NCBI GenBank assembly: GCA_037783415.1
Contig: JAZGTN010000119.1
Location: 186,001 to 250,000 of the forward strand
Length of the DNA stretch: 64,000 nucleotides
Direction of reading: 5' to 3'
DNA from: Leptasterias polaris
Taxonomy: Eukaryota > Echinodermata > Asteroidea > Forcipulatida > Asteriidae
Shown: positions 29,301-59,031 of the stretch, one piece after another
How the letters are laid out: the number at the start of each line of letters is the position of its first letter
How positions within the stretch are numbered: the stretch's first letter is position 1
Notes under the pieces: generated by a model
Databases searched by the model: none
The model's input: only the letters and a program-made list of their open reading frames with translations
What the model was told of the DNA's origin: nothing
Program-made: the position numbers and the translations under genes

Positions 29301-32300
29301 TAAAAAATAAAACAATTCTGAGATGACATCAATTTTCTGTGGAAGTCATTCAAACTGGTTTGACCAGGTTGAATAAAACAATGCGTCATATTTTGCGGAA
29401 ATTATGAAATTTCATAAATTTTTATTCTGTTTGAGTTTGACTTTTGAAAATGCCGCACCTGTTTGACCATCCTCCTTGTTGATGCTCGTTCCACTTGCTG
29501 TTGTTTTTGCAGAGAGGGGAACTAACTGATCACATCTTCTTTGACGCGTTGAAACAACTGCTGGAACTGGTGACGCCCCTGGATCTTTAACAGCAACTTT
29601 CTTCGATTTGGGGCTGACCATTTTCAAAAACAGAAATACAACACATGTTTTTTCATGAAGTTCCAAAAGATTTACTTGGTAATCAAGCAATTAAGGGGCC
29701 GTTCAGAATAATAAGTGTTTAATGTCAATATTTTTTTCACAAATGTGGGTGAGGGGGTCCAAAGAAATGAGTAAAAGAGGTAAATATAAAGAGAAGGGAA
29801 AAAAAAGCGTAGCCAAAAAAATGAAAATACAGAGAGGCCTCCTCCAGATTGTATGTGATGTCCTTGCAGTTCCACCTTGTTTTGATAGCCGATACTGTGG
29901 AGATGGCTTGAACTTTCTCTTTCCTTACAAAGTTGCATGCTAAAAGCCAGAAAAGGCCGTCAATTGAAGACTACTGAGCTTGGAGAATAATTTGTTTTAA
30001 ATATCTGGCTCAATTTGAAGCACTACTTAGTTTTCCAGGAGAAAATGGTAAATGAAATAGTCAAAAGTTATATATTTAAAAATCAAATATTGGCTGGATG
30101 TGTGGGCCCAAAACAATTTCAACAAAAGATGGAAATTTTAAACATTGACTTTTCCAAATGGCTTCTAAGAAATGAACAAGTCTAAATACAGTCTCTTGAT
30201 TTTTCAAACACATGCATATCTTGTTCTTTTGATTTTCCAGTGAAAGTGCCCTTTGCCTGCAGGCCTGTGTATTTATTGCCATTTACCTGGTCTTCTTGGA
30301 CTGTTTGGAAGTCAATGTAGCATTCAGGTGACTGTCTCCATTCCCCTTACTCCTCTGTCTGTTCTTGAAGTGATATCTGTAGGCAAACTCTTTCCGTGCC
30401 ATTTGCAGATTATGTTGGCCCTTTCTTGGGGACACCTTTTTATTTTTGTCTAGAAATAACAATATTAATATCTGAGTTTGGTATTTCCCCTTAAAGCGAT
30501 AAACAAAAGCACTGCAACCTCGTACGAGTTGTGACTTGGACTCCAGTCCGACTTGAATCACATTTAATTTATTACTCGGTACTCACTCGGACAGAGACTA
30601 GATAGTCAATGCCTTGGACTAGGACTCATCTAGACTCAAACTTGGGACTCGGACTCAAAGTCTGTGACTCTGGACTCGACAGCAAAAAGTTTATTATTTA
30701 ATCATATTAATCTCTCAAATAAATGACTGTGAATACTCTGTGTATTTTTTTTGAGTCCATCGGAAATGTTTTTTGAGTGATCATCCAAAAGTAGTGGATA
30801 CCGTTGGAAAGCTCTTTTTCAAGAGTTGAAAACCGTTGGAAAGCTCTTTTCCAATTGTTGGAAACCGTTGAAAAGCTCTCATCCAAGTCTTGGATACCGT
30901 TGAAAAGCTCATATCCAATTGTTGGAAACCGATGGAAAGCTCTTTTCCAAGAGTTGAAAACCATTGGAAAGCTCTTTTTCCAAGTTTTGGAAACTGTTGG
31001 AAGGCTTATTTCAAAGTGCTTGATACCGTTAGGAAGCTTTTGCCAAGTGTTGGATACCGTTGGAAAGCTAGTGTTGGAAAGCTCATTTTCAACTGAATTC
31101 AGAAATGTACACCTCAGTTTAAGTAAGATACAAAATTACTTTAATAACAATTTTCTTTTGGTGAGTGTCAGACTAGGTCTTGTAGTTTAAGCGCTCAATA
31201 ATTAAGTTTTCTTACCAGTATAAATGGCCTGGCTTAACAGCATCACCACTGACTCCAGGTACTGCACTCTCTCAACCGTCTTCTGAACTATCACCTCCTG
31301 ATTGTGATAAAAAATGTTAAAAGGTGAAAAAATGATTGTATAACTCCTATAGTCTCCTGATGTGGTGCAAGAGCACTAAGGTAAAAATGACTATTGAGAT
31401 AAACCGTCTCTCAGCTCTTTCAGAGCTTCTCTAGTCCTCCACAGAAGAGAGCTAACCTCGATTACATCTTTTCTGGGGTGTGGCGACCAGGGCCCTGGGG
31501 GTGTAGGGGGAGTGTGTCACCACCCAATAACTTTCTCAGTCGGTATTTTGAGTCTTAAGTGGCAAACAAAGCACTTTCAAAATCAAATAGAACAAGGACA
31601 TCTTAACTAGAATTCAGTCATTTTGACAGTCGGATTCCATGCTGGGTGCCTTGGTATAAAACTGGTCGACACAACACAGAGAAGGTGAGTAATTTAAAAA
31701 GTATAATTTCTTGAATTAGTGGACAATATTGGTAGGTGACAAGTGGCTTTTCATATATGCCGCAACAGTCTTCCATACAACATTTGATGATTCAATTTTC
31801 AGGTGAATAAAGAAAATATTATCAGAACAGGTTTTTAACCTGCGACTTCCAGATTAAGGTACCCACACTCTACTAACTAAGGCACCAAAAATAAAGTAAA
31901 AACCATTCCGATGACTTTGTCTCAATTCAGACTTTGTCTCAATTCTGCGTCTTGGCCTATGCTATGGGTCGTCCAAAAGGCCCCCCTCACCCAATTTTGA
32001 AAAATTATGTGAAGAACCCCGTTTTATATCTACCTTTGAAACGCGTGATTTCTGGCAGCTTCTTGTGGGCAGAACTTTATTCTTCAAGTGATTAAAGCAA
32101 CAAGAGAGATTTGACCTCCACTTTGCATCCGATTCCCGTCGCTTCTTCTTTTTCTCCTCCTTCCCAGGAGAAACTTCTTGGGGCCGGAGTATCAACGACG
32201 GTGCCCGAGTTTTGGCGGGCTCAGCTGCACACAGTGGCCTTGGAACCGGTTGAGAGGGGGCACTACACGTCGCTATTTGTTGGTGACGGTTGAACTTTTT

Positions 32301-34690: not shown

Positions 34691-37600
34691 ATGGCAGCCT
34701 GCACGGAGCTGACAGACGATCGAGCTCAAGAGTTTTTGGATTCATTTGACACGGTGTTATTCGATTGCGATGGTAAGTGTGGGACTGAAGGACATTGCAG
34801 GGAGAGGGTGAGAGTCCACCTGATTTTGTAAAAAAAAATTACATGGTTGTGAAAAAATACAAAAGTAAAAACTAAAGTTAAAGTAAATGAGGATTTATAG
34901 GAAGGAAATGGAATCTCGGGGCGTGCGGTCTGGCGGTGAAGCACCAGACTCTAGTTCGTGTAGTTCCGTGTAGTTCTTGTCCTCAAGCTCTGGGCCTAAT
35001 GCACGTATCAATTGTAGTCCCGGCCCTGGGGGACCCGGGACTTTGGCAGAGGTAGCCGGGACATAGACGGGGATGTGCAAAGAACTGTGCCCCGCTAGCC
35101 GGGACAATAGCGGGGTCTTTGCCGAGGTTGTACAAATTGTTTCCCCGCCCTACCGGGAAAATAGCGGTGACTTTGCCGAGGTTGTACAAATTGTTTCCCC
35201 GCCCTACCGGGACAATAGCGGATCGTGGAGTGTGTGACAAATGCCCTGCATGTCGGTCGGGGCCGGGATCGTGCGGGGGGTTGTTATAAATGCCCCGCAT
35301 GCCGGGGCAGGGTTCGTGCGGGGGTTGTTTTAAATGCCCCGCATGCCTGGGCCGGGATCATGCGGGGAATGTACAAAAACAAGTGCCCCGCCCCGGCCGG
35401 GCAGTAGCGGGGCATGGCAGGGACTATGACGCCAAGCCATTTTTACATCCCCGGCCAAGTCCCCGCTAGTCCCGGGTCCCCCAGGGCCGGGATTACAATT
35501 GATATGTGCATAATTTCATAGAGCTGCTTAACGGCTGATTCTTTGCTTACGTACGAGTTTCTATTTCATAGCGGTGCTAACCGTGAGCACATGAAAAGGC
35601 ATGCTAACCTTTCGGTGCTTACTCTTTAAGTCTTATCTTAATAATTACCGTCCTTTCTCAATGCTCTTTATACTTATAAGTCTTAGTCTAAGCTTAGTCT
35701 GCATGAAAATGAATGACGTAACCATGCAAATCCATTGTGAACGCGCGAGGCGGCCGCCTTATTTTTTGCTAACCTGTGAAATACGCTTTTATGCTTAAGC
35801 AAATTTGTTTGCTACAGTTAGCACCAAAATTTGCTTACCGTTTAGGCGGCAGAGCCTGGTGTTTCGACGGTGTTTCTGAATCCAATCTGACCAGCTGAGT
35901 ATGGGTTTGAGCCCCGCAGGTCGTGGGACTTGTGTCCTTGACATGATAGGAAGGCTCTTTCACTCCTAGACATCAGACATCACTTCTACTAGTTCTACTT
36001 CTAATTCTACTTCAAACCCACATTGTGTTGACTCACTCAGCCACTACATCTTGAATTCATGTTTTCTAGACTGTTGGCCACGACGCGTATGCCCCCCCAA
36101 AAAAAACTTTCCCCCTCCCTCCTCTCTCATGCCCCCCCCCCTTAGTTACATCACTGGATTGAGACTCCCAGTCATGGCATTAATAAATAGACCATTCCCA
36201 AGAAATATGTAGATTGCACATTGCGCGTGGGCACAAACACTTTGGTTGGCAAAATGATGGAACAACTCGCCTTTTGTATGGGGCTGATGGTGGCGTGACG
36301 CTGATGCGTTTGTGCGTCTGCTTAGTGCACATCTCTATGGCGTTTGCCAACCAATAGTGTCTGTACGCATGCGTGGATGTAATTAGCATATTTCATGGGA
36401 AGGTCTATTATGTCCAGTATGTTTTTCTACCAGGTGTGATTTGGACGGCCAAGTCTGCAATCCCCGGAGCGCAAGAAACACTGAAGAAACTGAGAGAATT
36501 GGTGAGAGTTTTTTATTAATAAATATCATACTGTCTGACCATTCAAAATCTTGCACATAAAAAGACTTTTATAATTTTTACAACATTGCTGAAAATGAGC
36601 AAAAACACAATTTATTTGTAGAATCGGTAAAAAAGTAGGCGGGAAGTGGTGGTTCCTCTTTGAATCTTAGAAATAAAAGAAACCCCAGGTCAAAATATAA
36701 ATGCAAAAAGTTTGTACATTCTAAAAAATTTGAGCATTTTTGCAAATTTTCCTAGCAAGCACACCATTATCATGTTTAGAATTTATTTGTATTTGGAACA
36801 TTACAAGACTTGCCTTAAGGCCAAGTAAAAAAACAAAAGAATTTCTCGTCCCCGCCCGCCTCCTTTTTGGCCGCCGCCTCCTTTTTTTACTATTTACTAT
36901 TTTCAGAAAAAATGAAAAAAAAAATAGAAAAAAAATAAATCTTAGGCCTTAATCAGATTTTTTTGAAGATTTAAAGCTGAAATCATATTTTTTGGATAAA
37001 ACTGAGTGGCTCTCTGATATTTTGAATCTCCTGAATCCAATTAGATGGGCCAAAATAGCAGCTTTGCCTCAAGAATTCCCAACTTTCTCATTAATATATC
37101 ATCTGTCTTGGCACCAAACCCAGCTGGGCATTCTTTTCAGAGCGGACAGCAACTGTTGTCGAAGGTGATGGTGCTGCGATTCTGCAGTGAAGGGTCTTAC
37201 AAATCATTTGTTTTGTCATAAATTGCATCAGTATACTCAAATAGCACAATATCTATGAATAAATATACCTTTGCCAGCCATATTTAGCTCGGCGGCCATC
37301 TTGGAAAAAATAGGTAAAAAATGAAAAAAAGTAAATAGTAACGCCCTGCCTCCTTTTTTTGAAAAAGTCCGGACGAGAAACTTTTTTGTTTGTTTTACTT
37401 GCCTTAATAATCTGGGTTTTTTTCTTCTTTGTTTCCTTCCCCAGGGTAAGCAAGTATTTTTCATCACCAACAATAGCACAAAGTCAAGAATACAGTATGC
37501 AAAGAAGTTTACCGACTATGGTCTCGGCAAAGTTTCAGTGGTATGTGAGACTAAATGTTTACAATTCTCGGGCTCAAAATTCAGGAAAAATCTTCACGAG

Positions 37601-40600
37601 AACACTAGTCTTGTTTCCAAGACGCTCCAGTTGTGTAATCACGAAGGCATGTCGTCACAAAAACCTAACTGCTATCTAAAACGCTATCATGCCCACGAAC
37701 CAATCTATTGTTCCTGTAAGCCCTATCACATGAGCGATAGCAGTTTGTAGTGTGATAGCGGTTACAGGAATGATAGCGCCCTCTAGTGATGATTGATTCA
37801 TGGGGTGATGGCCAATAAGAGATAGCGTTAGGTTTTCGTGACTACACAACTGGACCGTCGTGGAACACAGGTCCAGTGGCTCAAAACTTTCTCTGGACCT
37901 CAAGCAGATTGAAAACACCATAACTATTATGCCGATGTGTGTTAAGCACTGTATACTTTCCCGAGTTCTGTGAAAAAAAAAAATCCACAGGAAAATCACT
38001 CCGTCGGGATTTGGACCCACGACCTTTGCATTGCTAGAGCAGATGTCTTACCACTAGACCACCGAGTTAGCCTGATGGCTAGAGGCAGTTCGAATCCTTA
38101 GCAGCGGATATCGCAACAATAATAGATGTTAATTTTTGCAAAAATTAAAATTTATTAAACCATAACTTTGGACGTGTGTTGAATTTGGGGTTTGATTTTC
38201 CTGTTGTCTTTTTTCATCAGGATGATATATTCTGCACAGCCTATGCTGCTGCTCACTACTTAAAGGAGAAGCTGAAGTTCCAGGGTAAGGTGTATCTCAT
38301 CGGAGAGTCCGGTCTGGAGGAAGAGCTCAAACTTCACAATATTAGCTACACTGGACCCGGGGTGAGTGAGCTAAAGCCCTTTTCACACTACTCTATTCCC
38401 AGTGGGCAACCCCGTGGAATAACGGACGGCCTGTTCACACTATGATCGCTTCACCCCCCTGTCTGCCCCGGCAAGTGGGCATACCCCGGGGAATAGCCAC
38501 CCCTGCTCCGGAGTAGGGGTAAGCGGTAAAACCCTGGGGTATTCTTGAAACATGCAACAGGAGCCCTGTGGAATAGGGACCTAGGCGGGGATAGTGTGAA
38601 AGTGCGCCGGGGTAACCGTAGGGTAAAACAAAAAACGGGGCCTCCCCTGGGCTGTATTCCACGGGGGTAAGAGATGCGGTTTGAAAAAGGGCTTAAAACA
38701 GATAATATACAGGCCTGTCATAATGCGAACACACTCTGGAGAGATTTACTGGGATCCTAGGATCCAAATTATGACTAGGTCTACCCAGAGAGGTAATATT
38801 GAGAGAGTTGGAACTACTTGCAATTAGAAGCCATATTGTGTCCAAAAAAACCGCATGGGCGAACACAGGGTGCGAGTCTTGCCTGATCATTGGGTTGCAC
38901 TGCATTTGGGCATTTGGACCGAAAAATGGCGTCCAGCAACCATGTGACCAAAGAAAAGTGGTCCCTCTATGTCGCAACTCTCTCAATACACGGCTCTGGG
39001 TCTACCTACTTGTACTCAGTCCCTAAAGGAGACGATTCAGTCTTGAATAAAGACCAGTCTGGAGTAATGCCTACTAACCACTTGAAGAACACCGATCTGG
39101 AAGAACTTAATCCTCGCAACAATAACAACATGTAAACCTGACAGTGTACAGGCCAGTCATAATTTAATCTTCCTACATGCCCTACTAGAGTATTCAGCGT
39201 TCTCCCTTAAAGGCCCTGTACACTATTGGTAAAATCGAAAAACACAAATGTTCACAGATTCACACATAACTTACATGATTTAAAGTAAGTAATGGTAGAA
39301 AGGGTTCCTTAAAATATTTCTGCCTAAAATGCTATCGTTTCTGAGAAATGAGTAAAACAATAGTTTTTATCGCGCGCGATAATAAACTCGATGTTTGAAA
39401 AACAGAAAACACATAAGGTCTCTTTTCACTATTTTCTCGTGACCTCGATGACCAATTGAGCTCAAATTTTCACAGGTTTGTTATTTCATGTATGTGGTTG
39501 ATTACACAAAACATGAACACTGTCTGTGATTATTTTGTCAGCTCTGCCAATCCTGTATAATACCTTTAAGAGTGGTCCGCTGGCCAAATTTTGTTAAAAC
39601 ACCTGAGGACCAGTCAAAATACACTCCAAGTAGTCCGGCTGGCTAGCTCAGTGCTGAAAAGCATCCCTGTTCATTATGAATAATGGACCAGTGACAAGTT
39701 TTTACGGGACCAGTGAAATGACGAGCTAACTGGTCCCGCTGGCTAGTCAATGGGAAAGTTAAGGGCAAGTCCTGGTATTCCGTTGCAGTTCACAAGACTT
39801 GGAGTAGACCCCAGTGCCAAGCCACAACCTTAGCCACAACCTTCCTAGGTATTAACAGTTTTTTTAATTTTTCATTGATGCAGCCCGACCCAGTTGTGGG
39901 GTTTCAGAAAGATTGGTTGCAGATACCCCTGGATCCTGAGGTAAATGAAACCTTTGTTTACAAACCTTGACCCCACTTGGGTCAAATATTAATTACAGTA
40001 CTTAGTTATTAGTCACAAATGGTTAAGAAGAGGGCGATTGAGTGCACTTGTCAAAGTTGCTCACGGTAAGTAAAGAGTGAGATTTGAACCCACAATCTGC
40101 CACATTGAAGGTGTATAAAGATGGTCATGGTGGAAAGCTTCCCTTGAAATAGTTGTGCTTGAAATGCTATAGCTTTTTAGGTAATGAGTAAAACAATTAG
40201 TCCAAAACCCGATGATTGAAAAGAGTTAATATGTTTATATAATTGGGGTTTTCACTGTTTTCTCATGACTCCAAAGACCGATTTAGCTGAATCTTTCACA
40301 TATTTGTTAGTTTATGTTATCGTTTGGTGAAGTGTTCGTTTCATAAAGTCTGGATACTGGTTAAACAAACCAAGGAAACATAGTTTTTCAGAGAATTGTT
40401 ATGCTGTATTGGTTTTTCTGTTTACTACTTCCCCCCCTCCCCCTGTAGGTAAGAGCAGTGATAGTCAGTTACGACGTTCACATCAGCTACCTCAAAATCT
40501 TCAAGGCGGCAAGTTACCTTAGCGATCCATCCTTTCATTTCATCGCGACAGAAATGGACGGCCGAAATCATTACCCAGGGACAAACATTGTCAAACCTGG

Positions 40601-41713
40601 TAAGAGGATATAAATAATCGCAATGAAACGAAAGTTTGTTTGTTTTTTCTGCTTTTTCGTCTTTGTCAAAAGGTAAACGCTGTTTGCGTCGGTTTCGATC
40701 GAGAATTCACCTACATGAAGGTACTGAGGGCAGTGAGTTACTTGAATAAACCCAACGTTCCGTTCATCGGAACAAACACAGATTGTCGGTTCCCACCACA
40801 TGCTGATACGGGTATCGTTCTACCAGGTAAACCCAGAAACATTACATATTCGTCAAACCAGATACCATGGTGATCGGTGTTATACTTAACCTTTAACAAA
40901 ATTAAACGCTTTATGTCCTTGGGGCTGTATTTTTGTAGGTGTTTTAAGCTTCCTTTTGTTATATTTTAGGAAATATTCTTTTGTTAATGTCTTTTGTTAA
41001 CTATTTCAGTGCCAAGGTTGTACATGTCTGATCTATTTAATGTTATCTATTCTGGAAGTGACATTGTCGTACATGTATGATCTATTTTATGTACACAAAA
41101 ACTGTCATAAATCGTACATGTACGACCCATAATATACAAGTTATCATGAAAGGGCAGTATCACTCAAGAAATTCAAATGACTTTGGGATGTACCAAGGCA
41201 ACACATATCAGCAAAATACATTTTGTTTGGTGAGAAAGACTTATTAGTATTTTTTATTGCACACAATTTAGGAAAACAACAAAAAGCTGGGCATTTTATG
41301 TTCAAAACGGTAGCGGGCACTGAAAGAGTTAATATAATTTGTTTTTACCCTTCCCGAGTTCCGTGGAAAAAAAACCACAGGCAAATCAATTGCTAGAGCA
41401 GATGTCTTACCACTAGACCACACAGCTAGCCCGCAATGATTTAACATCTATTAAGTCTGTTGTTAATGCAAAGGATAGTTAATGGCCTGACGTTTCGACC
41501 CTAGCAGAGTCTTTCTCAAAGGCTAAATGACGACACAATGCACAATAAATAGGTATATAACTCACGTGTAACAGGGACTAACAGAAGCAGTCAAGTTGGA
41601 AGAAATTAAAGAAAGCACACGGCAAAAAAACAAGGGATGAGAAATGAAGAAGTAGACCAAGGGGGGAGGGCAAGGTGAGGGGGCTGGTCTAAACACCAGA
41701 GGTTTTTATTTGT

Positions 41714-41750
<37 letters not shown>

Positions 41751-44700
41751 ATGATAAGTATCTACAGACCCTTCAGAAGAGAAAAAAAACTTCCAGTTGA
41801 TACAACAAAAAGGGGGGGGGGGGGGGGGGGGGGTTTGATTGGTGCAAACAGCGTGTTTTCCTTATGAATGTTGGCTAAAAGATGCTGTGTAGATGAGTAG
41901 TGTAATTTGACATCATTAAGCTAGCAGGGAGGGTTGTGCAATGTACACGTAGGTCCAAGGCTCCATTTCACAAAGCACTAGGATTCACCTTTGAGATGAG
42001 ATTGCAATATTAATGCCACCGTGATTTGTGTTGTGACCTCACACTTTGCTTAGCAATTAAGATTGACGCACAGTTAAGATCAATCTTAGGTCTTTGTGAA
42101 ATCTGCCCCAGGGCCCAATCATAGAGCTGCTTCAGCAGAAATTATTGCTTAATAATTTTCTGCTAAGCAGAAATGAGCAGGATACCAGTCACAGATTATA
42201 CATGTTGCGTGGTAGTTTGGCCGGTAACCTTTAAGTATAATTTGTTGTGCTTAGCTACTTTTTGTGCTTAAGCAGCTCTATGAAATTGGGCCCAGTCCTT
42301 TTAAGAATAATAATAATAGTTTGTACCGCGCTTAATACTCTGTTTCTAAGCGCTGCAGTACTTTTCCTGCATGGTATGTGGAGCTAAAGTTTTGAAGTAC
42401 GAGACCTTTTTCCTTTACGTAGCAGCGATGGCACCACATAATGGTTTACAAGGTGCTGTGATGCAATATGCAAAGTACAAGACCTTTTTCCTTTACGTAG
42501 CAGCGATGGCACCACGTAATGGTTTACAAGGTGCTGTGATGCAATATGCAAAGTACAAGACCTTTTTCCTTTACGTAGCAGCGATGGCACCACGTAATGG
42601 TTTACAAGGTGCTGTGATGCAATATGCAAACTACGATACCTTTTTCCTTTACGTAGCAGCGATGGCACCACGTAATGGTTTACAAGGTGCTGTGATGCAA
42701 TATGCAAAGTACAAGACCTTTTTCCTTTACGTAGCAGCGATGGCACCACGTAATGGTTTACAAGGTGCTGTGATGCAATATGCAAAGTACAAGACCTTTT
42801 TCCTTTACGTAGCAGCGATGGCACCACGTAATGGTTTACAAGGTGCTGTGATGCAATATGCAAAGTACAAGACCTTTTTCCTTTACGTAGCAGCGATGGC
42901 ACCACGTAATGGTTTACAAGGTGCTGTGATGCAATATGCAAAGTACAAGACCTTTTTCCTTTACGTAGCAGCGATGGCACCACGTAATGGTTTACAAGGT
43001 GCTGTGATGCAATATGCAAAGTACAAGACCTTTTTCCTTTACGTAGCAGCGATGGCACCACGTAATAGTTTACAAGGTGCTGTGATGCAATATGCAAAGT
43101 ACAAGACCTTTTTCCTTTACATAGCAGCGATGGCGCCACATAATGGTTTACAAGGTGCTGTGATGCAATATGCAAAGTACGATACCTTTTTCCTTTACGT
43201 AGCAGCGATGGCACCACGTAATGGTTTACAAGGTGCTGTGATGCAATATCAAACTACGATACCTTTTTCCTTTACGTAGCAGCGATGGCACCACGTAATG
43301 GTTTACAAGGTGCTGTGATGCAATATGCAAAGTACGATACCTTTTTCCTTTACGTAGCAGCGATGGCACCACGTAATGGTTTACAAGGTGCTGTGATGCA
43401 ATATTCAAAGTACAAGACCTTTTTCCTTTACGTAGCAGCGATGGCACCACATAATGGTTTACAAGGTGCTGTGATGCAATATGCAAAGTACGAGACCTTT
43501 TTCCTTTACGTAGCAGCGATGGCACCACGTAATGGTTTACAAGGTGCTGTGATGCAATATGCAAAGTACGATACCTTTTTCCTTTACGTAGCAGCGATGG
43601 CACCACGTAATGGTTTACAAGGTGCTGTGATGCAATATTCAAAGTACAAGACCTTTTTCCTTTATGTAGCAGCGATGGCACCACGTAATGGTTTACAAGG
43701 TGCTGTGATGCAATATGCAAAGTACAAGACCTTTTTCCTTTACGTAGCAGCGATGGCACCACGTAATGGTTTACAAGGTGCTGTGATGCAATATGCAAAC
43801 TACGATACCTTTTTCCTTTACGTAGCAGCGATGGCACCACGTAATGGTTTACAAGGTGCTGTGATGCAATATGCAAAGTACAAGACCTTTTTCCTTTACG
43901 TAGCAGCGATGGCACCACGTAATGGTTTACAAGGTGCTGTGATGCAATATGCAAAGTACGATACCTTTTTCCTTTACGTAGCAGCGATGGCACCACGTAA
44001 TGGTTTACAAGGTGCTGTGATGCAATATGCAAAGTACGATACCTTTTTCCTTTACGTAGCAGCGATGGCACCACGTAATGGTTTACAAGGTGCTGTGATG
44101 CAATATGCAAAGTACAAGACCTTTTTCCTTTACGTAGCAGCGATGGCACCACGTAATGGTTTACAAGGTGCTGTGATGCAATATGCAAAGTACAAGACCT
44201 TTTTCCTTTACGTAGCAGCGATGGCACCACGTAATGGTTTACAAGGTGCTGTGATGCAATATGCAAAGTACAAGACCTTTTTCCTTTACGTAGCAGCGAT
44301 GGCACCACGTAATGGTTTACAAGGTGCTGTGATGCAATATGCAAAGTACAAGACCTTTTTCCTTTACGTAGCAGCGATGGCACCACGTAATGGTTTACAA
44401 GGTGCTGTGATGCAATATGCAAAGTACAAGACCTTTTTCCTTTACGTAGCAGCGATGGCACCACGTAATAGTTTACAAGGTGCTGTGATGCAATATGCAA
44501 AGTACAAGACCTTTTTCCTTTACATAGCAGCGATGGCACCACGTAATGGTTTACAAGGTGCTGTGATGCAATATGCAAAGTACGATACCTTTTTCCTTTA
44601 CGTAGCAGCGATGGCACCACGTAATGGTTTACAAGGTGCTGTGATGCAATATGCAAAGTACAAGACCTTTTTCCTTTACGTAGCAGCGATGGCACCACGT

Positions 44701-47700
44701 AATAGTTTACAAGGTGCTGTGATGCAATATGCAAAGTACAAGACCTTTTTCCTTTACATAGCAGCGATGGCGCCACATAATGGTTTACAAGGTGCTGTGA
44801 TGCAATATGCAAAGTACGATACCTTTTTCCTTTACGTAGCAGCGATGGCACCACGTAATGGTTTACAAGGTGCTGTGATGCAATATCAAACTACGATACC
44901 TTTTTCCTTTACGTAGCAGCGATGGCACCACGTAATGGTTTACAAGGTGCTGTGATGCAATATGCAAAGTACGATACCTTTTTCCTTTACGTAGCAGCGA
45001 TGGCACCACGTAATGGTTTACAAGGTGCTGTGATGCAATATTCAAAGTACAAGACCTTTTTCCTTTACGTAGCAGCGATGGCACCACATAATGGTTTACA
45101 AGGTGCTGTGATGCAATATGCAAAGTACGAGACCTTTTTCCTTTACGTAGCAGCGATGGCACCACGTAATGGTTTACAAGGTGCTGTGATGCAATATGCA
45201 AAGTACGATACCTTTTTCCTTTACGTAGCAGCGATGGCACCACGTAATGGTTTACAAGGTGCTGTGATGCAATATTCAAAGTACAAGACCTTTTTCCTTT
45301 ATGTAGCAGCGATGGCACCACGTAATGGTTTACAAGGTGCTGTGATGCAATATGCAAAGTACAAGACCTTTTTCCTTTACGTAGCAGCGATGGCACCACG
45401 TAATGGTTTACAAGGTGCTGTGATGCAATATGCAAACTACGATACCTTTTTCCTTTACGTAGCAGCGATGGCACCACGTAATGGTTTACAAGGTGCTGTG
45501 ATGCAATATGCAAAGTACAAGACCTTTTTCCTTTACGTAGCAGCGATGGCACCACGTAATGGTTTACAAGGTGCTGTGATGCAATATGCAAAGTACGATA
45601 CCTTTTTCCTTTACGTAGCAGCGATGGCACCACGTAATGGTTTACAAGGTGCTGTGATGCAATATGCAAAGTACAAGACCTTTTTCCTTTACGTAGCAGC
45701 GATGGCACCACGTAATGGTTTACAAGGTGCTGTGATGCAATATGCAAACTACGATACCTTTTTCCTTTACGTAGCAGCGATGGCACCACGTAATGGTTTA
45801 CAAGGTGCTGTGATGCAATATGCAAAGTACAAGACCTTTTTCCTTTACGTAGCAGCGATGGCACCACGTAATGGTTTACAAGGTGCTGTGATGCAATATG
45901 CAAAGTACGATACCTTTTTCCTTTACGTAGCAGCGATGGCACCACGTAATGGTTTACAAGGTGCTGTGATGCAATATGCAAAGTACGATACCTTTTTCCT
46001 TTACGTAGCAGCGATGGCACCACGTAATGGTTTACAAGGTGCTGTGATGCAATATGCAGCCAATCAAACAAGGAACACCGGGGCGAACCCCTTCTCTTTT
46101 CAATAAGTGCACTGGGCTCTTTTTTTTTTTTTAGCATTACACAACACACTGGACTTACGGCTTTAATTCCCATCCAAAGGACACAGAAATAATGGTCAAG
46201 TGTCTTGCCTAAAGGGTGTGTACAACATTGGTAAGATTGAAAATATAAATGTTCACAGATTTGCACATAACTCACATGGTATAAAGATGGTCATGGTGGA
46301 AAACTTCCCTTTGAAATAGTTTTGCTTGAAATGCCACGGTTTTTAGGAAATGAGTAAAACAATAGTCTTTATCACGCAGGATAAAATCCAATGTTTGAAA
46401 AAAAGTTAAAACATATAATGGAGTTTTTCACTGTTTTCTCATGACTCCGAAGACCGATTGAGCTTAAACTTTCACAGGTTTGTTATTTCATGTATATATT
46501 GGGTCACATCAAGTGTGGATACAGGTCTTTGACAATTACCAATGTTGTACACACCCTTTAAGGACACAAGTGTCATAACTGGGACTCGAACACACACTCT
46601 GCTGATCTTTTGCTAAACTTTCTACTCGTACTCCTTTTGTATTTGCAGGAACTGGATGTATAATTAACGCAGTCAAGACGGCTGCTCTCAGAGAACCTAT
46701 TCTGGTTGGTAAACCCAACAAATATCTCTTTGAATGTATCCAGCAAAGGTACGTAGAGTGCTGCACACTCCCTTTCTTAGTGGTACGGTCATGGATTATT
46801 TTTTTTGTCAAGGTAATACTGAGGTATTAGCAAAATTGTCATGAAATGTATAGTAAAAGTCAGCTGAATACAGTGTCTACTTGCTGAGAAAACAGCCCCC
46901 CCAAAAATGTCACAGTATTTTCACACGACATCAAATCCATCCACATTTAGCGAGGTGACAGTGGGTACCTACTGCATCTCTGGCCGCAGCATTCGCTACC
47001 GTGCACCTACCCTCGGAAATCTGAGAACAATTCATCTCAGATCCAAATGTTTTTGGGTGAAAAAAATCATCCAAACCATATTACTTCAAGGGGAATCTTT
47101 TCTCAAATTAGTTTATACTATCAACAGCTGCGGTGCTTCTCACCAAGTAAAGTTTTTATGGTCATTAATTGTTGGAGTAATAGGTGTTAATTTTTGCATC
47201 GGGGGGTAATGAATAGAATTTAGTTTTTACCCGACACGATGTGTGTTGAGCACTGTATACTCGGTACTTTCCCGAGTTCTGTGAAAAAAATCCACAGGCA
47301 AATCACTCGGGTGGGATTCGAACCCACGACCTTTGCATTGCTAGAGCAGATGCCTTACCACTAGACCACCGAGCTAGCCCGATGGCCAGAGGCGGTTCGA
47401 ATCATTGGCAGCGGGTACCGCACAATTTAATAGGTGTTAATTTTTGGAGTACTTACCAATGTATGACCTCCCACCTTTAACAACCAGCCCCTCCCCCTCC
47501 ACCCATAAATTGAGCAAATTGAAATATCTCTAACAAATATTTACGTTTCATGCCCAATGATCAGACACAAAGATGTAGTTCCCGAACGTACCCTCATCGT
47601 GGGCGACTCCCTCGGAACGGATATCCTTCTTGGAAGGAATTGCGGGATGAAGACGCTGTTTGTCTTGTCTGGAATCTCAACACTGGAGGAGGTTAGGCAC

Positions 47701-47802
47701 AACCAGGCTAGCAACTCAATCGAAGATCAAAAGCTCGTCCCGGATTTCTACCTACCTTCCATTAAAGAGCTTGGGGATCTGATTAGTAAAATAAAGTCGT
47801 AG
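34691..47802 (+). CDS. PGP: HAD-type phosphoglycolate / pyridoxal phosphatase (PGP/PDXP family)
   Basis: Exons 34691-34772, 36434-36501, 37445-37540, 38221-38361, 39884-39940, then 6a 40449-40599 or 6b 40673-40826, 46649-46748, 47565-47802 (TAG 47800). The product is 310 or 311 residues, close to human PGP (321). HAD motifs are all present: motif I LFDCDGVIW (D25, D27), motif II ITNNST (T58), motif III VGKPNKYLF (K220) and motif IV VGDSLGTDILLG (D246, D251). The C2-type cap lies between motifs II and III. Family members dephosphorylate 2-phosphoglycolate/glycerol-3-phosphate (PGP) or pyridoxal 5'-phosphate and cofilin (PDXP), with Mg2+, in the cytosol. Splice phases agree throughout only if exactly one of 6a or 6b is used. 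The intron between 40827 and 46648 holds a 3.7-kb minisatellite. I assign the symbol from overall similarity; this gene may predate the PGP/PDXP split, so either name could be used. Confidence 0.93.
34992..35855. mobile_element. MITE, GGGCC-AATTTCATAGAGC family, split by a younger element
   Basis: The left end GGGCCTAAT (34992-35000) and the continuation TAATTTCATAGAGCTGCTTA (35511 on) belong together. The right end is near 35855 (GGCAGAGCC). The split is the insertion at 35001-35510. Confidence 0.7.
35001..35510. mobile_element. GC-rich non-autonomous DNA element with ~43-bp terminal inverted repeats
   Basis: Ends pair as GCACGTATCAATTGTAGTCC / GGATTACAATTGATATGTGC and continue through CCGGCCCTGGGGGACCCGGG. 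The inside is GC-rich with repeats of GGGACAATAGCGG and GTTGTACAAATTGTTTCCCC. TAAT is duplicated at both borders (34997-35000 and 35511-35514). It lies in intron 1 of the PGP-family gene and is not a CpG-island promoter. Confidence 0.85.
36181..36410. mobile_element. MITE, AATAGACCNTTCCCA family
   Basis: Inverted ends AATAGACCATTCCCA / TGGGAAGGTCTATT. The window's last 16 bases (AATAGACCCTTCCCACG) look like the left end of another copy. Confidence 0.75.
37920..38150 (-). mobile_element. tRNA-Glu-like repeat element
   Basis: Reverse copy; CCACTAGACCACCGAG and GATTTGGACCCACGACC mark the boxes. A short fragment lies at 41350-41440. Confidence 0.7.
38374..38695. mobile_element. GC-rich MITE, AAGCCCTTTTCACAC family
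   Basis: Left AAGCCCTTTTCACAC, right TTGAAAAAGGGCTT, inside rich in CCCGGGG-type words. It starts 13 bases downstream of the donor of the PGP-family exon 38221-38361. Confidence 0.7.
40449..40599 (+). CDS. PGP: alternative cap exon 6a of the PGP-family gene
   Basis: The exon is 151 bp, enters in phase 0 and leaves in phase 1, with acceptor CCCCCTGTAG and donor G|GTAAGA. It encodes VRAVIVSYDVHISYLKIF...FIATEMDGRNHYPG...KPG. It is a clear paralogue of the exon 74 bases downstream, yet differs where the family is most constrained: GFD becomes SYD and GTN-x-D becomes ATE-x-D, followed by Asn-His rather than a hydrophobic residue. PDXP has ATD-x-D followed by Trp-His at this place, so 6a leans towards the PDXP type. 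Confidence 0.88.
40673..40826 (+). CDS. PGP: alternative cap exon 6b of the PGP-family gene
   Basis: The exon is 154 bp, phase 0 in and phase 1 out, with acceptor TTTGTCAAAAG and donor G|GTAAAC. It encodes VNAVCVGFDREFTYMKVL...FIGTNTDCRFPP...LPG. This matches the classical PGP cap (GFD-x-x-F-x-YMK, GTN-x-D followed by a hydrophobic residue) better than 6a. Used after 6a instead of replacing it, the frame shifts and stops within 27 codons at a TAA near 40747. Confidence 0.9.
42111..42293. mobile_element. MITE, GGGCCCAATTTCATAGAGC family
   Basis: Complete copy directly beside the SINE that hosts the minisatellite. Confidence 0.85.
42395..46058. repeat. 78-bp minisatellite, 47 copies
   Basis: The array spans 3664 bases, which equals 47 x 78 minus two single-base deletions (at about 43250 and 44887). 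Each unit begins AAGTACAAGACC and ends GTGATGCAATATGCA. Copies differ at a few sites only (AAGTACAAG/GATACC, CACGTAAT/CACATAAT, TTACGTAG/TTATGTAG). With 78 divisible by three and no stop in one frame per strand, the array reads open for hundreds of codons on both strands. It lies in the intron before the seventh exon of the PGP-family gene and has no start context or codon bias, so I treat it as non-coding. Confidence 0.97.
46210..46561. mobile_element. MITE, AAGGGTGTGTACAACATTGG family
   Basis: Terminal inverted repeats start AAAGGGTGTGTACAACATTG and end with the complement. The element splits the SINE at 42304-46610 (TTGCCTAA / GGACACAAG), showing it is younger than that SINE. Confidence 0.85.
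47178..47447 (-). mobile_element. tRNA-Glu-like repeat element with terminal direct repeats
   Basis: Reverse copy. AATAGGTGTTAATTTTTG occurs at both ends (about 47179 and 47430). Because other copies carry the same end word, it may be part of the element and not a target duplication. Confidence 0.7.
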
Positions 47803-50427: not shown

Positions 50428-50488
50428 TGTAATGTATTCACTTTAATCACGTCTGCCACTTTAAGAGTTACGCATGCGCATTCCAGTT
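50428..50488 (+). repeat. 61-bp inverted repeat, left arm
   Basis: Starts TGTAATGTATTCACTTTAAT and ends GCGCATTCCAGTT. It is a perfect inverted match to 51609-51669, immediately bordering the LINE fragment. Confidence 0.92.
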
Positions 50489-51608
50489 GTGTTTCTAATC
50501 ATTAATGCAACTTATAACACAAATGGTATTGCACTCCCTATATAACACATTGATTGGATCTTATCTTCATTATGGGATACTTGCTTGGGGAGCTAGTTCT
50601 GCTACTAATCTCAATCGACTTCTTATCTTGCAGAAACGAGCTCTTCGTATTATTAATTTTGCAGATTTTAACGCACATTCAGACCCCCTTTTCATCAAAT
50701 ATAATACTTTAAAAGTGAAAGATATTTATCGCCTACAGCTTGGGTCCCTGATGTATCGGCTGTCCTGCAAAAATTTACCTCCTGCAATTAATTAAATCAA
50801 TTTTTTCTTTAAATTCAGATGTTCATTCTCATTTTACCCGCCAAGCTTCTAATTTTCATATTCCTTACACTCGTACTTCCCTTGCTCGTAAAACGATTAA
50901 ACATGAGGGACCCATGCTGTGGAACGTGCTTAATGAACACCTTAGAGTTTCCAAAAGTGTATCTATCTTTAACCGTGTCTTTAAATCTGACACGTTGGAA
51001 TCTTATTTGTAGATGAGTGAACAGATATGTATGAATTTACCATGTACTTATTATCTAAACATGTACATGTACAGTGCTGACCGGGAATGGGTGGTCCCCT
51101 CCGCCGGGGATCCTCGCCCACATTGCCCATTTCCAAGCTTGTTTTTCCCTTGGTGGTATTATATCCTCTGGGTGTGATCACTCTGTTTCGGTCGGTACAA
51201 CTAGCAGACCTGCAAGGCCGTTGTGTTTAGTTTTTGTCCAGTGTTTTGTTTACGTCCTTTGTTCTATTTGTTGTTTAGTGTTTAGTTAAATTTATCATTG
51301 AGTTTACATGCATGTGCATTGAGATATATTTTTACTATTTTTTGAACTCGCCTCGCCCTCGGACCTTTTGGTTCGTCGAAGTGTAATTAATATGTGTCTC
51401 AATGCAAATGCATGTCTTTAGGGACCATTGCCTACAAGCTCTGCTTCTAAAATGGATCCCTCTGCGGTATCATATTTATTTTCATCTTGATATATCTTTA
51501 CTGTATTGTATTCTTTAAACTGATCGCTCTTGAGTGATAATGTATAGTTTTTAGTTGTTGATCTGTGGTAAATAAAATGAACCTATGAACCGGCCCTATG
51601 AACCTATG
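50489..51608 (+). mobile_element. 3' fragment of a non-LTR retrotransposon (LINE) reverse transcriptase
   Basis: Coding remnants at 50505-50792 (SYLHYGILAWGASS, LLILQKRALRIINFAD, DIYRLQLGSLMYR) and, in a second frame, 50817-51013 (NFHIPYTRTSLARKTIKHEG, GPMLWNVLNEHL, SIFNRVFKSD) are the C-terminal part of a jockey/L2-type ORF2. A frameshift and a 5' truncation make it inactive. The 3' end carries CCTATGAAC repeats (51575-51610). Confidence 0.85.
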
Positions 51609-56700: not shown

Positions 56701-59031
56701 TTATCATCCCAAACCCATCTAAACTTTCTCCAGTTTACCCTAAGAAACCCAGAACACTAATCGCAACCCCAACCTTTACCTCAACCCTTTTACCCACCCT
56801 GACCCTCTCCATCCCCGACCCACCCATAAAATTGTAGTCTCAATTTGCTATTTGTATGTCAATTTGTTTACTTTAGGAAAAGAGTTGAAAAAGAGGCTGT
56901 TTGAACATTACGCATTGTTAGAGGAAGCGGCACTGGGGTATGTCAGGAATCGTAGAGAGACAATCCAACTACTGGAGAGTCTAGCTGATGAGCTTACCAC
57001 TCATCATAGCAATGCACAAGCCGCCAAGGTATCGTTCACAACACACATTCCTCATTATAACACCCCTTACCTGCCTTTTGATTGGTTTAAAGTGCATCAC
57101 ATGATATGTCTTATAACACCCCTTACAAAGATTCTGCCTTCTGATTGGTTTAAAGCACGTCCCATGATATGTCTTATAACACCCCTTACAAAGATTGTGC
57201 CTTTTGATTGGTTTAAAGCGTGTCACATGATATGTCTTATAACACCCCTTAGAAAGATTGTGCCTTTTGATTGGTTTAAAGCGTGTCACTAGATATGTCT
57301 TATAACACCCTTACAAAATTCTTCCTTTTGATTGGTTTAGAGCGTGTCACATGATTTGTCTTATTTTTACTAGAAGGCCGCCATTAAACACCTCTTACAA
57401 AGACTCTGCCTTTTGATTGGTTAAGACGCGTCACATAATATGTCTTATTTTTACAAGAAGGCTGCCATTCTAACACTCCTTAAAAAGATTCTGTCTTTTG
57501 ATTGGTTTAAAGGGCATCACATGATTTGTCTTACTTTTAGAAGGCCGTGCGAACGTGGCGCGCTGTACACGCAGAAAACAAGGTACTATACCCGTAGCAA
57601 CAACAGCTTCTTGGTACCTTAACGTCAAGGCACAATATGTGTATGAGGTTTTATAAAACAAATATTGACTGCTTTTACTCGTGTTAGGTTGAAACTACAA
57701 CTCTGGGTGATCCCCGGAGCGGTCTACTTTCCCTCAACGGGAAAATAGAATGTGCCTAGGATCACCTCGGGCGTCGTAATTTTAACCATAGCACTCGAAG
57801 CAGCCAATATTTGTATACTATCTCACCCTTCCTTCAGCTCCATCAAAACTCAACACTCAAACTGTTTGACCCTAGTCACTGCAGTGTGCCTGAGCCAGTG
57901 TGAAGAATAATCGGTTTGCCTGTGCAGGTTCTCAGTCCAACACCATTCAGTAACTCAACACTCAAACTGATGAACTCTGATGATGAAGTGGTATAACAAA
58001 TCTCAAGTTTACTAGCAGGCATGGAATTTCATATTTGAGAGGGCAAGGCCATTGTAAATCGCCTTTTTGTCATTATGAATAATTGTCTTTATGTTTTCAA
58101 ACTGTCTTTTAATTTGGAAAATTGTACTTTTATTTTGAACTGTCTATTTATTTGATGCTTTGTCTTGTGTCTCCAATAATTGCAGGAAAAAAGGAGAATA
58201 AGATAAGAGTTTTGGGATCAGCTTACATTAAAACTAAAAAAAAGATGTTCTAAGTGTTTTCCGGTGTGCCTTTGAACAAATTTGAAGCCTCTACCATCAA
58301 GTTTTGAAGTGTCATTACAAGTCAGTTTGGTTGATAAGTAGTTTGCAATCATGTGTTTTCTTTTTCCTTTTGTCTAGATTTCCGGAGGAGTGGCCGGGAT
58401 AGTTGGATCCGGTCTGGCAATCGGTGGATTTGCGGCATCATTCTTCACATTTGGGATCTCCCTCGGATTGGTGGCTGCTGGAGCTGTAATCGGTGGTGCC
58501 GGTGGGTTAACTGCAGTTGGTGGAATCATGACAGAGGTGATTTCCTCGAAGTTGACGAGCAACAAGGCCAAGGAGATTCTTCTGCAAGACAACAACTCGT
58601 GTAATTTGTTTGTCGAAGCCTTGAAGAGTGTTGAAGCATCACATAAAAATCTGCTCAACACTGTGCGAGTCTCGGGCGGAATTATCGGAGGCGGTAAAAA
58701 CGTCCTTAACGTCGTCAATTCAGTGACTGACATGGTGAAAGTGAGCTCGCTGAGTGTGGAAGCAGCAGAAGGCTTTGGGCGAACTGCTTTTAGGGCAGCA
58801 TCAGCGGCGGGTAAGGGCGTTGCGATTGCCAGCGTCGTGCTAAGCGTGGTTACGATCCCCATTGATTTGTACATTATCATATCATCTGCACAGTACTTGC
58901 ACAGCAAAACAATCCCAGAGGTCGCCCGAGAGATTTATCGCATCATTGATGAACTGGACTGCCCCACGGAGAAGGCAATCAAACTCAGCATTTCTGAAAT
59001 GAAATGCAGACAACTGAAATGTATCGTGTAG
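53758..59031 (+). CDS. apolipoprotein L-like protein
   Basis: Four exons: 53758-53797, 55673-55780, 56877-57028, 58378-59031 (TAG at 59029). Phases agree and the product is 317 residues. Residues 1-6 are MGNNSS, a fit to the N-myristoylation pattern (Gly2, Ser6). Residues ~72-100 are an amphipathic helix (LLEEAALGYVRNRRETIQLLES is split across it). Residues 101-151 form a long Gly/Ala-rich hydrophobic hairpin (VAGIVGSGLAIGGFAASFF, then SLGLVAAGAVIGGAGG), the hallmark of the apolipoprotein L domain. A second hydrophobic stretch lies at ~246-270, followed by an amphipathic tail. There is no signal peptide, so an intracellular, membrane-associated protein like most vertebrate APOLs is likely. 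Vertebrate APOLs bind lipid and some form ion channels; whether this one does is not shown. Introns carry a SINE, a C-rich tract and a 63-bp tandem repeat. Confidence 0.85.
54045..54169. mobile_element. short hairpin MITE, GACCCAGTAACT ends
   Basis: The two halves are near-perfect inverted copies, including GTACTTGTTTTTCGAAAT and TTTTGACATCTGC, with a short central spacer around 54100-54118. Confidence 0.8.
54489..54868 (+). mobile_element. tRNA-Leu-derived SINE, 5' truncated, with internal 33-bp triplication
   Basis: Starts within the tRNA part (TGTTTCTGTTCAGCAGAG) and ends with (ATT)n. The segment GCACTTATCGAAAAGAGAAG is present three times in tandem at 54638-54736. Confidence 0.85.
55794..56190 (+). 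mobile_element. tRNA-Leu-derived SINE in intron 2 of the ApoL-like gene
   Basis: Begins GCGTGTCATGACCACGCTG, only 13 bases past the exon 2 donor; B box GGGTTCGAATCCCAG; tail ATTATTATTAT. Confidence 0.8.
56220..56830. repeat. C-rich, strand-asymmetric tract in intron 2 of the ApoL-like gene
   Basis: Irregular CCCAACC / CATCCCA words for about 600 bases with almost no G. No fixed period is seen. Confidence 0.85.
57057..57535. repeat. 63-bp tandem repeat in intron 3 of the ApoL-like gene
   Basis: About seven to eight units with CTTTTGATTGGTTTAAAGCG and CACATGATATGTCTTATAAC; the last units carry an inserted TTTTTACTAGAAGGCCGCC. Confidence 0.85.

What the first reader, a model, noticed from the sequence alone, without database searches (positions are those of the whole stretch)
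40449..40826. Frame-enforced mutually exclusive cap exons in a PGP/PDXP-family phosphatase
Exons 6a (151 bp) and 6b (154 bp) are tandem paralogues, about 17 of the first 39 aligned residues identical. Both enter in phase 0 and leave in phase 1. Using both gives a stop within 27 codons, and using neither also breaks the frame, so exactly one must be chosen. The intron between them is only 73 bases. The swapped segment includes the cap substrate-specificity loop of this family. 6b keeps GFD and GTN-x-D followed by a hydrophobic residue (PGP type). 6a has SYD and ATE-x-D followed by Asn-His, nearer to PDXP, whose specificity histidine lies there. One gene could thus make two phosphatases whose activities vertebrates split between PGP and PDXP. 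Exon structure is seen directly; the functional split is inference.
Basis: partly seen in the sequence, partly recalled or inferred. Interest (0 to 1): 0.88.

Follow-up and report, generated by a model that had tools for sequence, protein, structure and literature searches.

The report
Starfish phosphatase with swappable cap exon
A starfish gene for a metabolic clean-up phosphatase carries two alternative versions of the exon that shapes its substrate pocket, only one of which can be used at a time, and the same pair is conserved in distantly related starfish.

Summary
The window lies in an echinoderm genome, nearest to the starfish Asterias amurensis (94%). It holds one eight-exon gene of the phosphoglycolate/pyridoxal phosphatase family. 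Exon 6 is present twice. Either copy gives an open frame (310 or 311 aa); both or neither gives an early stop.

The pair is not a dead duplicate. Patiria and Acanthaster proteins named isoform X1 and X2 are identical outside exon 6; X1 carries 6b and X2 carries 6a. Between window and Patiria, 6a is 80% identical, 6b 75%, the rest 72-74%.

The 73-nt intron between them has no adenine at positions 35-68. The branch point therefore probably lies within 34 nt of 6a's donor, below the proposed steric threshold, which fits exclusion as in OGDH.

The PDXP reading is not supported. The specificity-His column is Asn or Lys in 3 of 3 6a sequences, and 6a scores 50 bits to PGP against at most 33 to PDXP. 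6a instead changes family-invariant residues in its own way, suggesting a third, unknown substrate preference. No transcript or activity data were available.

The parts
34691..34772 (+). exon 1 coding part (start codon at 34691)
   Evidence: matched by genome search
36434..36501 (+). exon 2
37445..37540 (+). exon 3
38221..38361 (+). exon 4
39884..39940 (+). exon 5 (ends in phase 0)
40449..40599 (+). exon 6a, 151 nt, alternative cap/specificity-loop exon
   Evidence: open frame, splice sites, 80% and 75% identical to isoform X2 of Patiria and Acanthaster
40600..40672 (+). 73-nt intron between 6a and 6b; adenines only at positions 3-34 and 69-72; 34-nt A-free tract at 35-68, 28 of 34 pyrimidines
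40673..40826 (+). exon 6b, 154 nt, alternative cap/specificity-loop exon (isoform X1 type)
46649..46748 (+). exon 7 (entered in phase 1)
47565..47802 (+). exon 8 to stop codon

Best explanation
This is a conserved mutually exclusive exon pair in the only PGP/PDXP-family phosphatase gene that my searches detected in a starfish genome. Exon 6 was duplicated before the window's lineage (near Asterias) and the Patiria/Acanthaster lineage separated, and both copies have been kept. Each mature mRNA carries one copy, so one catalytic core is fitted with one of two cap segments (strand-helix-strand plus the substrate-specificity loop). Exclusivity has two layers. First, the intervening intron is so short that the branch adenine for 6b's acceptor probably lies within 34 nt of 6a's donor, so 6a-6b joining is sterically blocked (inferred from sequence). 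Second, double inclusion or double skipping shifts the frame and stops early (shown). The most likely result is two phosphatases with different substrate preference: 6b near the PGP type, and 6a an altered, non-PDXP preference for a small phosphorylated metabolite not identified here (inferred). The caps also form the dimer interface in mammals, so mixed dimers are possible (inferred).
For: Frame and exon anatomy. Patiria and Acanthaster X1/X2 isoforms: residues outside exon 6 identical (148/148 and 110/110 in each species), exon 6 swapped. 6a window-Patiria 41/51 and window-Acanthaster 38/51; 6b 39/52 and 35/52; flanks 72-74%. 6a clade support 100/98 with stem 0.66. Both isoforms exceed the TIGR01452 cut-off (287 and 282 bits against 202). 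AF2 models of the Patiria isoforms have mean pLDDT 93.3 (6a) and 93.2 (6b) and both match mouse PGP best, TM 0.92. The catalytic motifs lie outside exon 6 (motif names recalled). 6a changes two residues that are N and P in 115 of 115 other homologues to E and H, in all three species. A PDXP-core/PGP-cap hybrid dephosphorylates phosphoglycolate (PMC9652372 passages), so the cap can carry specificity. No adenine at intron positions 35-68; OGDH precedent with branch points 25-41 nt from the donor (PMC7969005 passages).
Against: No RNA-seq or enzyme data. 'Isoform X' names look like automatic predictions, and their read support was not seen. No 6a-type isoform of Asterias appeared, although A. amurensis has an 'isoform X1'. 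The branch point is not mapped, and the steric threshold comes from vertebrate and viral work. The PDXP query of this genome did not complete, so 'only one family gene' rests on a 6b query and the family profile. 6b itself departs from other PGPs.
Confidence: 0.66

Rival explanations
1. 6a converts the enzyme to a PDXP-like pyridoxal phosphatase, so one starfish gene does what vertebrates split between PGP and PDXP.
For: Acidic Glu at the column where PDXP has Asp and PGP has Asn; a His in the loop in 3 of 3 sequences; Tyr in 2 of 3. Human PDXP scores higher with 6a than with 6b (profiles 33.3 against 30.5 bits; tblastn 39.3 against 31.2 bits). No second family gene was found in this genome by the family profile or the 6b query. 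Loop lengths differ, so the His could still sit near the PDXP position in space.
Against: His182 column is N/K/K; Arg62 of the PDXP core is Thr; Glu152 is Val; Tyr150 is Phe in Acanthaster; 6a is much nearer PGP (50.2 bits) than human PDXP (33.3) or mouse PDXP (27.0), and mouse PDXP scores higher with 6b (29.2) than with 6a.
Confidence: 0.1
2. The 6a isoform is a catalytically weak regulatory partner that pairs through the cap with the 6b isoform and tunes its activity, rather than having a substrate of its own.
For: PGP and PDXP homodimerise through the cap; 6a breaks two family-invariant loop positions.
Against: The core catalytic motifs are shared; the model of the Patiria 6a isoform is confident; 6a's loop residues are themselves conserved in three genera, which points to selection on a specific function.
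Confidence: 0.14
3. 6a is an unused or decaying duplicate kept by chance.
For: No transcript evidence was seen here.
Against: 6a is at least as conserved as the rest of the protein between genera, open, with usable splice sites, and present in proteins named isoform X2 in two species.
Confidence: 0.03
4. Choice is made by recursive splicing: joining exon 5 to 6a recreates a donor (GAG|GTAAGA) that can be used again to remove 6a and join exon 5 to 6b.
For: The regenerated donor scores 5.97, against 3.87 for exon 5's own donor and 4.91 for 6a's donor, on a recalled weight matrix.
Against: 4 of 24 codon choices for the Val-Arg start would give a donor scoring 4.91 or more, so it may be coincidence; no other starfish DNA was available.
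Confidence: 0.07

Closest known systems
coq-2 exons 6a/6e of C. elegans, helminths, annelids and molluscs (PMC7434440: outline, section 5 and passages; PMC8659336: passages)
   Same: Tandem mutually exclusive exons swap a segment at the substrate site of a metabolic enzyme; one form matches the pan-eukaryotic enzyme and the other carries lineage-specific residues; substrate switch demonstrated there.
   Different: A prenyltransferase, not a phosphatase; both exons 134 nt in C. elegans; substrates known; found in several phyla.
OGDH exons 4a/4b of vertebrates (PMC7969005: passages)
   Same: Mutually exclusive exons of a metabolic enzyme; short intervening intron with branch adenines near the upstream donor followed by a long polypyrimidine tract.
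   Different: Alters calcium response, not substrate; intron 118-131 nt in birds and mammals; branch points mapped there, inferred here.
Mammalian PGP (AUM) and PDXP (chronophin) paralogues (PMC9652372, PMC11164532: passages)
   Same: Same C2-capped HAD fold and family profile; the cap contributes to substrate choice.
   Different: Two genes in mammals, one gene with two exons here; 6a matches neither specificity signature.
'glycerol-3-phosphate phosphatase-like isoform X1/X2' of Patiria miniata and Acanthaster planci (P0001, P0002, P0004, P0005)
   Same: Orthologous isoform pair, same swap boundaries.
   Different: Deposited annotation only; searches listed no paper that describes the pair, but one search's one paper was not opened and one search showed 15 of 1,534.

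Membership tests
PGP/PDXP eukaryotic phosphatase family (TIGR01452, HAD class IIA) | Family profile above curated cut-off | tested here: met
   287.0 (6a) and 282.4 (6b) bits against 201.95
PGP/PDXP eukaryotic phosphatase family (TIGR01452, HAD class IIA) | HAD core motifs (DCDGV, TNN, GKP, GD..TD) present | tested here: met
   Invariant columns in A1; all lie outside exon 6. Motif names recalled.
PGP/PDXP eukaryotic phosphatase family (TIGR01452, HAD class IIA) | C2-cap fold like solved PGP/PDXP | tested here: met
   Models of the Patiria orthologues, TM 0.92 to 7po7; the window proteins themselves were not modelled
PDXP (pyridoxal phosphatase) subtype, for isoform 6a | Specificity-loop His182 (human) | tested here: not met
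   N, K, K in the column; His one column later; spatial place not measured
PDXP (pyridoxal phosphatase) subtype, for isoform 6a | Core Arg62 and cap Tyr150/Glu152 | tested here: not met
   Thr62; Tyr in 2 of 3; Val at the Glu152 column
PGP subtype, for isoform 6b | GFD, GTN-x-D and hydrophobic loop residue | tested here: met
   GFD and TN-x-D-x-R-F in 4 of 4 6b sequences (GTN in 3, ATN in Acanthaster); exon segment two residues longer than in Danio
PGP subtype, for isoform 6b | Phosphoglycolate phosphatase activity | not testable with these tools
   No assay
Mutually exclusive exon pair | Homologous tandem exons, one per protein, frame break otherwise | tested here: met
   isoform pairs in two species
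Mutually exclusive exon pair | Junction reads for each exon and none for both | not testable with these tools
   No RNA data

The most novel reading that the evidence does not exclude
Starfish evolved a third substrate specificity of the PGP/PDXP family, neither phosphoglycolate nor pyridoxal phosphate, and keep it as a splice-selected cap of their single family gene, so that a cell can switch, or mix in heterodimers, two metabolite-repair activities by splicing alone.
Probability: 0.35. Interest if true: 0.72.

Novelty: new member of a known kind. Interest (0 to 1): 0.56.

Why it matters
[quoted passage not shown] Here evolution has made a very clean pair: identical cores, two conserved cap segments, one locus. 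It offers a direct test of which loop residues set specificity in an enzyme family for which inhibitors are being developed (PGP, PDXP). It also adds a deuterostome case to the mutually exclusive exons placed at the substrate site of a metabolic enzyme, of which coq-2 is the clearest that I found.

Tried and rejected
Dead-duplicate reading: rejected on cross-genus conservation. A third exon-6 copy: none in the window at E<=0.05 and none in the genome; one search is insensitive, since its 6a query did not report even 6b, while one search did report 6a. A PDXP paralogue at C183:178324: the flagged exon was read out; it gave no match to the Patiria 6b-isoform query there and a weak one to PDXP (3.75e-05, 66 residues); it reads like HDHD2 (recalled, not searched), so it was set aside. 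RNA secondary structure of the 6a-6b region: z -1.56, 8 of 100 shuffles at least as stable, so nothing claimed. Exon-6 tree: 51 columns are too short to place 6b against other classes, so no claim on whether the duplication predates starfish; two of the 17 proteins that I chose for it (Callorhinchus, Ambystoma) were dropped because my pattern did not cut their exon. Recursive-splicing donor: kept only as a low-probability rival. My idea that an Asterias 6a isoform is hidden in P0003's two-member cluster was weakened, because the Patiria isoforms (92% identical) are separate clusters. Rows named PGP_hs are the mouse PGP chain 7po7, mislabelled. In literature seven papers were listed and only the coq-2 lead was read.

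Full report
What is there. The window sits at C119:186001-250000 of a 630-Mb, 334-contig genome. Its phosphatase gene encodes a protein 94% identical to Asterias amurensis 'glycerol-3-phosphate phosphatase-like isoform X1', so the genome is most likely a starfish near Asterias; the species is not known. The gene has eight coding exons, one of them doubled, with GT..AG introns. Exon 6 exists twice: 6a, 40449-40599, and 6b, 40673-40826. Lengths are 151 and 154 nt, both leaving remainder 1. Translation gives 310 aa with 6a, 311 aa with 6b, a stop 24 residues past 6a if both are used, and a stop 4 residues past exon 5 if neither is used.

The two exons are homologous. They share 22 of 52 aligned residues and 17 of the first 39. 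Their score of 96 stands against a maximum of 25 in 5000 shuffles. tblastn of 19 exon-6 sequences finds only these two places in the window at E<=0.05. In the whole genome a 6a query finds one place, but it does not report even 6b, so it says little about diverged copies. A full 6b-isoform query finds nine matches at E<=0.001, all at this locus, 6a among them. The family profile TIGR01452 finds six matches at E<=0.001, all at this locus, and three weaker ones elsewhere up to E 1. The best of those three was read out: no match to the Patiria 6b isoform there, a weak one to human PDXP (3.75e-05 over 66 residues). I take it for an HDHD2-type exon, from recall. The other two (E 0.23 and 0.51) were not examined. 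Human PDXP as a genome query did not complete.

The pair is conserved. A search with the 6a segment returned two proteins at E<=10 among 6 candidates: 'isoform X2' of Patiria miniata (P0001) and of Acanthaster planci (P0002). The Patiria 6a segment returned the same two among 5 candidates. A full 6b search (477 hits, 120 listed) returned the X1 isoforms of both species and of Asterias amurensis. Within Patiria and within Acanthaster, X1 and X2 are identical outside exon 6 (148/148 upstream, 110/110 downstream) and differ exactly at the exon borders seen in the window. Between window and Patiria, 6a is 41/51, 6b 39/52, upstream 106/148 and downstream 82/111. Against Acanthaster, 6a is 38/51, 6b 35/52, upstream 108/148 and downstream 82/111. 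6a is therefore at least as constrained as the rest. Same-type exons between the window and these two species (67-80%) are far closer than 6a and 6b within one species (42-50%), so the duplication predates the split of these lineages. An exon-6 tree groups the three 6a sequences at 100/98 with a long stem (0.66) but leaves 6b unresolved among other classes. The one protein that I fetched for each of Amphiura, Anneissia, Antedon, Holothuria, Diadema, Glandiceps and Saccoglossus carries a GTN/ATN-type exon, not the 6a type; 357 of the 477 hits were not listed, and other echinoderm genomes could not be searched. Against full symmetry: no Asterias 6a isoform appeared in the searches, although A. 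amurensis has an 'X1', and read support for the X models was not seen.

What the swap changes. In the model of the Patiria 6a isoform, exon 6 covers strand 149-154, helix 162-171, strand 178-181 and the following loop, with short strands at 187-189 and 196-198; in the 6b model the last two are single bridges. In mouse PGP the substrate-specificity loop is residues 202-215, the cap carries dimerisation, and a hybrid of PDXP core and PGP cap dephosphorylates phosphoglycolate (PMC9652372, passages). In human PDXP the inhibitor cavity is lined by Asp27, Asn60, Ser61 and Arg62 and by Tyr150, His182, Pro183 and Leu184, with Glu152 at the entrance; His182, Asn60 and Arg62 are also said to be important for PLP binding (PMC11164532, passages). 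Tyr150, Glu152, His182, Pro183 and Leu184 all fall within the exon-6 segment. Both isoforms keep the core motifs and pass the family cut-off. The AlphaFold2 models of the Patiria orthologues are confident (mean pLDDT 93.3 for 6a, 93.2 for 6b; the two loop blocks 73-84), and both match mouse PGP first and PDXP after it. Models of the window proteins themselves were not run.

Is 6a PDXP-like? Column by column against 115 other homologues (120 listed less the two 6a and three 6b rows), 6a alone has Glu183, where 115/115 have Asn and PDXP has Asp; His189, where 115/115 and PDXP have Pro; and Lys197. The column of PDXP His182 (Leu in 111 of 115) is Asn, Lys and Lys in the three 6a exons; HMMER places it the same way. 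Tyr156 (PDXP Tyr150) is Phe in Acanthaster, PDXP Glu152 is Val, and PDXP Arg62 is Thr in both isoforms. A 6a profile scores 50.2 bits to mouse PGP, 33.3 to human PDXP and 27.0 to mouse PDXP; a 6b profile scores 60.6, 30.5 and 29.2. So 6a has moved away from PGP by about 10 bits, and towards human PDXP by 3 bits but away from mouse PDXP by 2: no clear move to PDXP. Exon segments are 51 (6a) and 52 residues (6b) against 50 in Danio, so where the His sits in space is open. My reading is a third, unassigned specificity. 6b is not plain PGP either: Arg replaces the usual Glu (98 of 115) at 158, and the loop is RFPPH.

How one exon is chosen. The 73-nt intron has adenines only at positions 3-34 and 69-72; positions 35-68 are A-free and 28 of 34 are pyrimidines. 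Of 63,927 73-nt stretches of the window's plus strand, 93 contain an A-free run this long, though 3' splice sites are A-poor by nature. Positions 69-72 are too near the acceptor, so the branch adenine for 6b most likely lies within 34 nt of 6a's donor. In OGDH, branch points 25-41 nt from the donor, followed by a long polypyrimidine tract, enforce exclusivity; 41 nt is given for rat Tpm1, and under 50 nt as a steric threshold (PMC7969005, passages). The layout here is the same, so 6a-6b joining is probably blocked, and any leak is frameshifted. Which factor sets the ratio is unknown. Folding the 6a-6b region gave nothing beyond chance. A rival, recursive use of the donor recreated at the 5/6a junction, is possible but weakly supported.

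Known or new. Tandem exons that switch the substrate of a metabolic enzyme are known: coq-2 exons 6a/6e (PMC7434440, outline, section 5 and passages; PMC8659336, passages). I saw no paper on such exons in PGP or PDXP, or on this starfish pair, in searches (0 papers; 1; 1, not opened; 7, one read in part; 15 of 1,534 shown, none of the 15 with the exon term); the held library lacks most subscription journals. The isoforms are deposited as named proteins. I class it as a new member of a known kind, of more than usual interest because the swapped piece is a known specificity module on an otherwise identical enzyme.

Noticed in passing
window 42395-46058: A 78-bp minisatellite, 47 copies at 97% match, fills most of the 5.8-kb intron between 6b and 7 and is open in long ORFs on both strands.
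   Followed up: no
window 37996-38068 and 47303-47375, minus strand: Two tRNA-family hits (31.9 and 47.9 bits) inside introns of this gene, in similar repeated sequence; probably a tRNA-derived SINE (SINE reading is by eye).
   Followed up: no
window 58378-59028, plus strand: An open stretch of 217 aa matching Pfam ApoL (PF05461, 38.8 bits, cut-off 25.9).
   Followed up: partly
window about 50480-51000, plus strand: By eye, a stretch that reads like the decayed 3' end of a LINE-type reverse transcriptase gene.
   Followed up: no
window about 30790-31100: A degenerate direct-repeat array (AAACCGTTGGAAAGCTCTTTTCCAA-like units) seen by eye and as repetitive ORFs.
   Followed up: no
P0003 to P0005 and window 40673-40826: Exon 6b of starfish also departs from other PGPs (Arg for Glu at 158, loop RFPPH, segment two residues longer than in Danio), so the 6b isoform's activity should not be assumed to be plain PGP.
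   Followed up: partly
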